The notes under the pieces are model-generated. The model was given only the letters and a program-made list of their open reading frames with translations. It ran no database searches and had not been told where the DNA came from. Made by a program: the position numbers and the translations under genes. Of a DNA stretch of 64,000 nt, positions 8,301 to 9,440 are shown in pieces (within the stretch, counting starts at the first letter, position 1; every line of letters begins with the position of its first letter). This stretch comes from Yersinia aleksiciae (GTDB lineage Bacteria > Pseudomonadota > Gammaproteobacteria > Enterobacterales > Enterobacteriaceae). Location of the stretch: positions 743,710 through 807,709 of the forward strand of contig NZ_CP011975.1 of the NCBI RefSeq assembly GCF_001047675.1, written 5' to 3'.

Positions 8301-8410
8301 GGTTGGTGGTCAGCCAGTTGCTCACCCTGTATACCACCCCAGTGGTTTACCTCTACTTTGACCGACTGCGCAGTCGCTTTAGCAAACAGCCGCTTACGAG
8401 ACTGGAATAA
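5336..8410 (+). CDS. mdtC: MdtC, RND efflux pump subunit
   Basis: Second RND subunit, 1024 residues, partner of MdtB. It has the same architecture: N-terminal transmembrane segment (IQRPVATTLLTLAIT), TM4 relay motif ATGFVVDDAIVVLENISR, and a C-terminal block with IGIVKKNAIMMVDFAL. The start is a GTG overlapping the mdtB stop. The stop TAA at 8408-8410 overlaps an ATG (TAATG) that opens the ERIC-derived frame. In E. coli mdtC is followed directly by mdtD; here eight ERIC units intervene. Confidence 0.98.
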   Translation: MKFFALFIQRPVATTLLTLAITLSGIIGFSLLPVSPLPQVDYPVIAVSASMPGADPETMASSIATPLERALGRIAGVNEMTSTSSLGSTRIILQFDLNRDINGAARDVQAALNAAQSLLPTGMPNRPTYRKMNPSDAPIMIMTLTSDTFTQGQLYDFASTKLAQKIAQTEGVSDVSVGGSSLPAVRVELNPSALFNQGVSLDAVRQAISAANVRRPQGSVDSSEQHWQVQANDEIKTAEGYRPLIIHYNNGSPVRLQDVANVVDSVQDVRNAGMSDGKSAVLLVISREPGANIIATVDRIRAELPALRASIPASIELKIAQDRSPTIRASLEEVERSLIIAVALVILVVFLFLRSGRATLIPAVAVPVSLIGTFTAMYLCGFSLNNLSLMALTIATGFVVDDAIVVLENISRHLEAGMKPMVAALRGVREVGFTVLSMSISLVAVFIPLLLMEGLPGRLFREFAITLSVAIGISLVISLTLTPMMCAHLLRAQPAGQQQRIRGFGKVLLAIQRGYGRSLNWVLGHTRWVMVVLLSTIALNVWLYISIPKTFFPEQDTGRMMGFIQADQSISFQAMQQKLKDFMKIVNDDPAVDNVTGFTGGSRTNSGSMFISLKPLSERSETAQQIITRLRAKLAKEPGASLFLAPVQDIRVGGRQANASYQFTLLADDLTALREWEPKVRAALAKLPELADVNSDQQDKGAEIALTYDRETMARLGIDVADANALLNNAFGQRQISTIYQPLNQYKVVMEVAPQYTQDVSSLDKMFVINSNGQSIPLSYFAKWRPANAPLAVNHQGLSAASTISFNLPDGGSLSEATAAVERAMTELGVPSTVRGTFTGTAQVFQETLKSQLWLIMAAIATVYIVLGILYESYVHPLTILSTLPSAGVGALLALELFDAPFSLIALIGIMLLIGIVKKNAIMMVDFALDAQRNGNISARDAIFQASLLRFRPILMTTLAALFGALPLVLGSGDGAELRQPLGITIVGGLVVSQLLTLYTTPVVYLYFDRLRSRFSKQPLTRLE

Positions 8411-9435
8411 TGGCGCACCCTATAGATTTCAACCTGCAGGAAGGCGGCAAGCGAGAAAGTCCCGATGAGCTTACACCAGTAAGTGATTCGGGCGACCGAG
8501 TGCGGCCAACGCATCTGCGGTTTGGAAAGAGGCACCGCACTGAATACCCTATAGATTTCAATCTGCAGGAAGGCGGCAAGCGAAATAGTCCCGATGAGCT
8601 TACACCAGTAAGTGATTCGGGCGACCGAGTGCGGCCAACGCATCTGCGGTTTGGAAAGAGGCACCGCACTGAATACCCTATAGATTTCAATCTGCAGGAA
8701 GGCGGCAAGCGAAATAGTCCCGATGAGCTTACACCAGTAAGTGATTCGGGCGACCGAGTGCAGCTAACGCATCTGCGGTTTGGAAAGAGGCACAGCACTG
8801 AATACCCTATAGATTTCAATCTGCAGGAAGGCGGCAAGCGAAATAGTCCCGATGAGCTTACACCAGTAAGTGATTCGGGCGACCGAGTGCAGCCAACGCA
8901 TCTGCGGTTTGGAAAAAGGCACAGCACTGAATACCCTATAGATTTCAATCTGCAGGAAGGCGGCAAGCGAAATAGTCCCGATGAGCTTACACCAGTAAGT
9001 GATTCGGGCGACCGAGTGCAGCCAACGCATCTGCGGTTTGGAAAGAGGCACAGCACTGAATACCCTATAGATTTCAATCTGCAGGAAGGCGGCAAGCGAA
9101 ATAGTCCCGATGAGCTTACACCAGTAAGTGATTCGGGCGACCGAGTGCAGCCAACGCATCTGCGGTTTGGAAAGAGGCACAGCACTGAATACCCTATAGA
9201 TTTCAATCTGCAGGAAGGCGGCAAGCGAAATAGTCCCGATGAGCTTACACCAGTAAGTGATTCGGGCGACCGAGTGCAGCCAACGCATCTGCGGTTTGGA
9301 AAGAGGCACAGCACTGAATACCCTATAGATTTCAATCTGCAGGAAGGCGGCAAGCGAAATAGTCCCGATGAGCTTACACCAGTAAGTGATTCGGGCGACC
9401 GAGTGCAGCCAACGCATCTGCGGTTTGAAAGATGA
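8410..9435 (+). other. Open frame across the ERIC array, 341 codons, coupled to mdtC and mdtD
   Basis: A continuous frame of 43-residue near-identical repeats (unit YPIDFNLQEGGKR... through ...LRFGKRHSTE). Because each ERIC unit is 129 bp (3 x 43), the frame stays open in every unit. Its ATG overlaps the mdtC stop (TAATG) and its TGA overlaps the mdtD start (ATGA). No strong Shine-Dalgarno precedes it, so expression would need reinitiation after mdtC. The predicted product is hydrophilic and of low complexity. It may be a translated spacer rather than a functional protein; I do not call it a gene. Confidence 0.45.
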
Positions 9436-9440
9436 CGGGT
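8417..9440 (+). repeat. Tandem array of eight ERIC units (129-bp period)
   Basis: Eight head-to-tail units, with the motif TATAGATTTCAA starting at 8421, 8550, 8679, 8808, 8937, 9066, 9195 and 9324. Each holds the ERIC core CCCGATGAGCTTAC...GTAAGTGATTCGGG, able to form a hairpin. The outer ends keep the terminal inverted repeat (CACCCTATAG on the left, GACGGGTAT on the right); the internal junctions read GCACTGAATACCC. Units 1-4 carry point differences and units 5-8 are identical apart from the truncated last end, which suggests recent expansion of the distal copies. ERIC elements in enterics are usually single and about 127 bp. Confidence 0.95.

What the first reader, a model, noticed from the sequence alone, without database searches (positions are those of the whole stretch)
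8410..9440. ERIC array forms an open, coupled bridge between mdtC and mdtD
Eight 129-bp units keep one frame open for 341 codons. The frame starts in an ATG overlapping the mdtC stop (TAATG) and ends in a TGA overlapping the mdtD ATG (ATGA). Thus the stop/start coupling typical of this operon is kept across more than 1 kb of repeat. A tandem ERIC array acting as a translated spacer is, as far as I know, not described.
Basis: partly seen in the sequence, partly recalled or inferred. Interest (0 to 1): 0.85.

Follow-up and report, generated by a model that had tools for sequence, protein, structure and literature searches.

The report
Translated repeat bridge between pump genes
A small mobile DNA repeat, here in eight tandem copies, sits between two drug-pump genes, and in most related species that carry it there it keeps an open reading frame from one gene to the next, as if to let ribosomes pass, although translation of the repeat has not been shown.

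Summary
Eight 129-bp ERIC units lie between mdtC and mdtD; one sense frame is open for 341 codons, with TAATG at the mdtC stop and ATGA at the mdtD start. Openness alone is weak evidence: one antisense frame is open throughout too.

Comparison makes it stronger. Ten complete mdtC-mdtD junctions in the genus hold an ERIC or remnant. In 9 of 10, one or two ORFs (18-341 codons) link mdtC to the mdtD ATG; the exception has a 71-bp frame-breaking insertion. By the same rule 0 of 13 ERICs between panB and panC bridge; with hops up to 60 nt it is 10 of 10 against 5 of 13. The sense frame is open in 10 of 104 other ERIC ends and through 0 of 12 other arrays. The ERIC's right terminal repeat supplies mdtD's start codon; the peptide is not conserved.

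Best reading: an old ERIC insertion displaced mdtD's start, and termination-reinitiation through the ERIC frame replaced direct coupling. Translation is not shown; tests on substitutions and indels are modest, and ERIC-free species nest inside the group.

The parts
8410..9435 (+). 341-codon bridging ORF through the ERIC array (ATG 8410, TGA 9433-9435)
8417..9432 (+). tandem ERIC array, 129 bp x 7.9; in-frame unit starts 8416, 8545, 8674, 8803, 8932, 9061, 9190, 9319
9427..9442 (+). canonical ERIC right terminal repeat GAAAGATGACGGGTAT of the last unit; holds the stop of the bridge ORF and the start codon of mdtD (ATGA 9432-9435)
8408..8412 (+). TAATG: stop of mdtC overlapping start of the bridge ORF
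5336..8410 (+). mdtC (RND efflux permease subunit)
   Evidence: NF007905, 2099 bits
9432..10850 (+). mdtD (MFS transporter); in the window the ATG in the ERIC terminal repeat is the only start before codon 17, and an in-frame TGA lies two codons upstream
   Evidence: (NF007799, 896 bits)
820..2196 (+). mdtA
2196..5339 (+). mdtB
10855..12231 (+). baeS-like sensor kinase, 4 nt after mdtD (name recalled from operon order, not searched)
12235..12960 (+). baeR-like response regulator (name recalled from operon order, not searched)
8394..9485 (-). antisense open frame of 363 codons; by eye it resembles the ERIC/RU-1 peptide printed by Delihas 2007; judged a by-product

Best explanation
An ERIC element inserted long ago between mdtC and mdtD, at or just ahead of mdtD's original start, in an ancestor of many species of this genus (Yersinia). 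Its right terminal repeat carries ATGA and became mdtD's start (MTGIRWQLW). The region near the mdtC stop that once served mdtD then opened an ORF that reads through the ERIC and stops at the ATGA. Ribosomes finishing mdtC restart on the ERIC ORF, cross the hairpin, stop at TGA and restart on mdtD. Selection keeps the frame and the stop/restart points, not the peptide and not the length. In the window's species the element was amplified to eight units whose altered junctions read through, so the coupling spans more than 1 kb. Shown: anatomy, frame retention across species, control loci, start codon inside the repeat, and by calculation a weak Shine-Dalgarno match and a strong hairpin. Inferred: translation, reinitiation, selection, and the single insertion.
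For: 9 of 10 complete ERIC-bearing junctions bridge, with ORFs of 341, 61+43, 18+43, 43, 18, 18, 40, 18 and 27 codons, every hop -1 to +9 nt. Of the 6 ERIC-free junctions in the same walk, 5 have the mdtD ATG 4-8 nt after the mdtC stop and 1 a 12-aa ORF overlapping it. Of 25 loci from other Enterobacterales where an mdtC stop was found, 15 have the first mdtD start -1 to +7 nt from it. Control: ERIC between panB and panC in 13 of 25 genomes, where panC keeps a GGAG-type leader before its own ATG in 13 of 13 (read): 0 of 13 bridged with hops up to 10 or 30 nt (Fisher 1e-5, ignoring relatedness). Sense frame open at least 38 codons back from an exact right repeat in 10 of 104 non-mdtD sites, 1 of 9 panC sites among them, against 5 of 6 full-length ERICs at mdtC-mdtD (Fisher 1e-4); 10 of 61 own-genome ERICs; 0 of 12 other tandem arrays. 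Codon position 2 changes about as often as position 3. mdtD Shine-Dalgarno in the window -2.4 kcal/mol; ERIC-bearing genomes -2.4 to -5.8, ERIC-free -5.8 to -6.9. The last unit with the mdtD start folds at -53.2 kcal/mol, z -5.1, 20 of the 25 bases around the ATG being paired.
Against: No ribosome or protein data. G003 (Y. artesiana) has a broken bridge and an intact mdtD. 8 of 25 genomes lost mdtD. The panC control depends on the rule: with hops up to 60 nt, 10 of 10 mdtC-mdtD junctions and 5 of 13 panB-panC junctions are reached (P = 0.003), and many panC chains fail for want of a near first ATG rather than of a frame; 8 of its 13 distances share one residue modulo 3. Neutral simulation of substitutions alone gives P = 0.016-0.088 that all nine stay open, by choice of root. 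Four of five length changes are multiples of 3 (P = 0.045), but this is the same data as the bridge count. The ten junctions share descent. ERIC-free G013/G014 and G022 fall inside the core group of the mdtC tree, so one insertion needs later clean losses. The ERIC units evolve more slowly than mdtC (mean ratio 0.69), so part of the retention may be constraint on the element or gene conversion. Accessibility is mixed: the -15..+10 region opens when the leader is cleared (0.25 to 0.47 in the window), but the AUG alone does not (0.57 to 0.27), and in G012 and G007 the region does not open either. The leader ORF's own Shine-Dalgarno is also weak (-3.0 in the window; -2.7 to -6.4 over ten).
Confidence: 0.58

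Rival explanations
1. Passive relic. The ERIC happened to land in a frame that was open, and unit amplification copied it. mdtD is translated from its own start at a low level; the bridge has no role.
For: One antisense frame is fully open and another over 222 of 338 codons; 129 is a multiple of 3; chance of nine lineages staying open by substitutions alone is 2-9%; one species tolerates a break; mdtD lost in 8 of 25 genomes; 5 of 13 panB-panC junctions are reached too if hops of 60 nt are allowed.
Against: The sense frame is open for fewer than 38 codons at 94 of 104 other ERIC ends and not through in 12 of 12 other arrays; no panB-panC junction bridges with hops up to 30 nt; yet at mdtC-mdtD the frame survives length changes of -66, -45, -21 and +18 (ORF lengths, placed by eye).
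Confidence: 0.28
2. mRNA processing site. As reported for other Yersinia ERICs, ribosomes entering the ERIC unmask an RNase E site, so the array sets the ratio of mdtABC to mdtD-baeSR mRNA. The open frame lets ribosomes enter.
For: De Gregorio 2005 as described in PMC2229807 (one section read) and PMC10969869 (passages); strong predicted structure, 996 nt of the array -339 kcal/mol, z -3.1 from 20 shuffles.
Against: Does not explain why the last stop of each chain sits on the mdtD ATG, nor why shortened 18-codon remnants keep the frame. RNase E cleavage was not testable here.
Confidence: 0.1
3. The ERIC ORF makes a useful peptide or protein (43-residue repeats).
For: Long intact ORF.
Against: Length 18 to 341 codons between species, two ORFs in some; no excess of changes at codon position 3 over position 2; no NCBIfam match at E 0.001, and none of the 7 Pfam matches has a stretch that passes on its own.
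Confidence: 0.03

Closest known systems
ERIC / IRU / RU-1 elements of enterobacteria (MITE)
   Same: Same element: about 127 bp, shared core and terminal ends TACCC..GGGTA, many genome copies
   Different: Eight tandem copies inside an operon; the right repeat serves as a gene start; sense frame kept open
ERIC ORF fusions (Delihas 2007, PMC2759123)
   Same: ERIC sequence read as protein
   Different: Delihas's RU-1 and RU-1f frames lie on the other strand (Table 1a) and lengthen or form annotated ORFs; here the sense frame is a separate ORF ending on the next gene's start
Rickettsia palindromic elements in genes (as described in PMC10969869, passages)
   Same: Small repeats kept in frame in a coding context
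   Different: Those are inside proteins; here between two genes, with stop and restart
Termination-reinitiation at ATGA/TGATG overlaps (PMC6728339, abstract)
   Same: Same overlap signals
   Different: The coupling would be relayed through a mobile repeat, up to 1 kb, in one or two steps
ERIC effects on Yersinia mRNA stability (De Gregorio 2005; not held, known through PMC2229807 and PMC10969869)
   Same: ERIC inside a transcript, with a role for ribosomes entering it
   Different: That work concerns decay of upstream mRNA; no bridge to a downstream start is mentioned in the passages I saw

Membership tests
ERIC element | about 127-bp unit with conserved core and inverted terminal repeats | tested here: met
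   the window unit as query matches 75 places in the own genome, where a profile seeded with an ERIC consensus finds 61 near-full-length copies; the last unit has both ends and folds as one hairpin
ERIC element | dispersed in many genome positions | tested here: met
   75 matches in the own genome, the array's own units included
ERIC element | TA target duplication | tested here: inconclusive
   ends TATACCC and GGGTATA seen in relatives; N-termini around the site differ too much to define the empty site
Termination-reinitiation coupled gene pair | overlapping or near stop and start | tested here: met
   TAATG and ATGA
Termination-reinitiation coupled gene pair | downstream translation depends on upstream translation | not testable with these tools
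   needs reporter or ribosome profiling
Conserved protein-coding gene | purifying selection on amino acids | tested here: not met
   position 2 changes about as often as position 3, e.g. 6, 5, 7 and 5, 10, 11 at positions 1, 2, 3
Delihas RU-1 ORF fusion | RU-1 or RU-1f frame fused to an annotated ORF | tested here: not met
   opposite strand and free-standing ORF

The most novel reading that the evidence does not exclude
The ERIC right terminal repeat (TTGAAAGATGACGGGTATA) is a portable stop-and-restart signal: it holds stops in two of three sense frames next to or on an ATG. Where an ERIC lands on a gene's start, it can take over initiation and turn itself into a translated relay ORF. At mdtC-mdtD this relay has been kept, shortened, chained and amplified across a genus under selection for frame and coupling alone.
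Probability: 0.48. Interest if true: 0.75.

Novelty: new variant of a known kind. Interest (0 to 1): 0.6.

Why it matters
It would show a mobile repeat tamed as a translation relay inside an operon, with the reading frame under selection and the peptide not. That is a way for operons to survive insertions without losing coupling, and it gives a natural length series (18 to 341 codons) to test how far reinitiation coupling can be relayed. It also warns that ERIC-derived ORFs may be translated without making a functional protein.

Tried and rejected
Openness by chance: kept as a rival, because antisense frames are open too. A functional peptide: rejected. Unit length 129 as evidence: rejected, since arrays of period 126 or 129 occur elsewhere with the sense frame closed. 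Right-repeat ATG as start of many genes: 16 other sites had an ORF of 129 codons or more from that ATG. Reading them, those I recognised (panC, gloB, yihI, glpQ, ppc; identities recalled, not searched) have a usual-looking start a few codons further down, so the repeat ATG is probably only an upstream extension there; L254, L260 and L264 were not settled. A second control at the gene of L188 failed: the query was taken from the wrong side, so only its (capped) list of tandem arrays was used. Naming the species: the one genome-contig scan named one relative of the same genus, Yersinia artesiana (L066), whose contig position matches G003; the window's species was not identified, and the genus name rests on that match. 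In the tree, G008 was badly cut out and misplaced; it was left out. G020 was not counted because its contigs end inside the ERIC. In one search one site (L217) lies too near a contig end to be informative, and the sites include orthologues. In one search, 15 of 76 profile hits were dropped as partial. The 12 other arrays were picked from lists, not an exhaustive set; the longest sense run in them covers 218 of 282 bases (L353). In one search most panC loci were missed by a narrow pattern; one search repeats it, but its walker looped on G002 and allowed 60-nt hops, so walks both junction sets by one rule.

Literature. Searches: (PubMed Central open licences only; listings of 5 to 20 rows). In those listings and the passages read I saw no description of an ERIC relay between genes; most subscription papers are not held. 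Seen: PMC2759123 (outline, abstract, Results part 1 of 3, Discussion, passages), PMC2229807 (outline, abstract, one section), PMC10969869 (search listing, passages), PMC6728339 (outline, abstract). De Gregorio 2005 is not held.

Full report
What is there. Between mdtC (5336-8410) and mdtD (9432-10850) lie eight tandem 129-bp units. NCBIfam names the four proteins MdtA, MdtB, MdtC and MdtD. The units are ERIC elements: the window unit matches 75 places in the own 4.0-Mb, single-contig genome, the array's own units included, and a profile found 61 near-full-length copies in 39 other fetched own-genome stretches. One sense frame is open from ATG 8410 to TGA 9435, with TAATG at the mdtC stop and ATGA at the mdtD start. 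The units differ by a few ordered point changes, which speaks against a simple assembly artefact.

Chance. The unit is a multiple of three and nearly identical between copies, so the frame is open in all or none. One antisense frame is open through all 338 codons and another for 222. By eye these resemble the two ERIC peptides printed by Delihas 2007 (PMC2759123, Table 1a); the frame of the finding is on the other strand. In the own genome the sense frame is open to the right terminal repeat in 10 of 61 copies, and ends at an ATGA there in 7. So openness alone says little, and comparison was needed.

The same place in relatives. All 25 genomes searched in the genus (G000 included) have mdtC, and 17 gave an mdtD locus next to it. 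In the other 8, baeS follows mdtC directly or after a short mdtD remnant, and 4 of those 8 show what looks like an ERIC left end after an ATG (L037, L043, L044, L054; by eye). Of the 17, one (G020) is split by contig ends inside the ERIC. The other 16 were walked from the mdtC stop to the mdtD start: 10 hold an ERIC or remnant, 6 do not. In 9 of the 10, one ORF or two ORFs chained by ATGA lead exactly to the mdtD ATG: 341 codons (window), 61+43, 18+43, 43, 18, 18, 40, 18 and 27. In the tenth (G003, Y. artesiana) a 71-bp insertion breaks the chain while mdtD stays open for 469 codons. Of the six ERIC-free junctions, five have the mdtD ATG 4-8 nt after the mdtC stop and the sixth has a 12-aa ORF overlapping it. 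For other Enterobacterales, one search examined 29 loci, Y. artesiana among them; 26 gave an mdtC stop, and in 15 of the 25 that are not Yersinia the first mdtD start is -1 to +7 nt from it. Tight coupling is therefore probably ancestral.

How the start moved. ERIC-bearing mdtD proteins begin MTGIRWQLW, MTGIRAQLW or MTNIRWQLW; ERIC-free ones have various N-termini before the shared RWQLW. ATGACGGGTATA is the ERIC right terminal repeat. In the window a TGA lies two codons upstream in the mdtD frame and the next in-frame start is codon 17; some relatives have a TTG at codon 8 or a GTG at codon 11. So the repeat most likely supplies the start. G010 keeps both the repeat-derived MTG and what looks like the older MTQATSIRWQ, suggesting insertion just ahead of the old start. 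In the mdtC tree ERIC-bearing species are spread over the core of the genus, which a well-supported branch parts from Serratia, G021 and G016. The shared right junction fits a single old insertion, but ERIC-free G013, G014 and G022 lie inside the core, so that reading needs clean losses; separate insertions at one site are not excluded.

Controls. An ERIC also lies between panB and panC in 13 of 25 genomes. One walking rule was applied to both junction sets. With hops of at most 10 or 30 nt, 9 of 10 mdtC-mdtD and 0 of 13 panB-panC junctions are bridged (Fisher 1e-5). With hops of 60 nt it is 10 of 10 against 5 of 13 (0.003), the five reaching panC through an in-frame upstream ATG. Many panC chains fail for want of a first ATG near the panB stop, so this control tests the whole relay, not the frame alone; 8 of its 13 distances are 2 modulo 3. 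For the frame alone: of 111 exact right repeats in 20 genomes, 105 sites were read and the 6 not read are mdtD; in the 104 that are not mdtD the sense frame is open at least 38 codons upstream in 10, 1 of the 9 panC sites among them, against 5 of 6 full-length ERICs at mdtC-mdtD (Fisher 1e-4). In 12 other tandem arrays, two in the window and ten fetched, the sense frame is never open through the array. These Fisher values ignore common descent.

Strength of selection. Codon position 2 changes about as often as position 3 (6, 5, 7 at positions 1, 2, 3 between the window's last unit and G002; 5, 10, 11 between G005 and G002), so the peptide is not conserved. Random substitution along the mdtC tree leaves all nine bridges open with P = 0.016-0.088 depending on the assumed root. 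Of five length changes inside the element four are multiples of three (P = 0.045); they come from the same junctions as the bridge count and are not separate evidence. Each result is modest; with the controls they favour selection for the frame. The slower change of the ERIC than of mdtC (0.51-0.87, mean 0.69) leaves room for other constraint.

Mechanism. mdtD's Shine-Dalgarno match is weak in the window (-2.4 kcal/mol) and on the whole weaker in ERIC-bearing (-2.4 to -5.8) than in ERIC-free genomes (-5.8 to -6.9). The last unit with the mdtD start folds into one hairpin (-53.2 kcal/mol, z -5.1), with 20 of the 25 bases around the ATG paired; two internal units fold less well (-40.2, z -2.1). 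The accessibility calculation is mixed. I infer that ribosomes ending mdtC restart on the ERIC frame, open the hairpin, and restart at ATGA. Termination-reinitiation at such overlaps is established elsewhere (PMC6728339, abstract). None of this was observed here.

Verdict. Rated a new variant of known kinds (ERIC element; overlapping-codon coupling).

Noticed in passing
own genome: L146, L149, L153, L161, L167, L175, L181 and others; window 23978-24252 and 37553-37793: Tandem ERIC arrays of 2 to 5 copies are common in this genome, with periods from 121 to 142 bp in those measured; similar arrays occur in other species of the genus.
   Followed up: partly
L037, L038, L041, L043, L044, L053, L054, L055: mdtD has been lost between mdtC and baeS in 8 of 25 genomes of the genus, with differing remnants, suggesting repeated loss.
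   Followed up: partly
panB-panC loci L290-L294, L298, L299, L301, L302, L304, L309, L310, L314: ERIC or ERIC-like sequence between panB and panC in 13 of 25 genomes, 150 to 252 nt long; no bridge with hops up to 30 nt, 5 of 13 reached with hops of 60 nt.
   Followed up: yes
L345:995-1633: Five-copy 129-bp ERIC array in G014 next to a D-lactate dehydrogenase-like gene (recalled from the sequence); open through only on the antisense strand, 304-codon ORF.
   Followed up: no
window 63137-63379: Imperfect 102-bp tandem repeats at the window's end, period a multiple of three.
   Followed up: no
window 15164-15252 and 25234-25334: CyaR/RyeE sRNA and TPP riboswitch matches.
   Followed up: no
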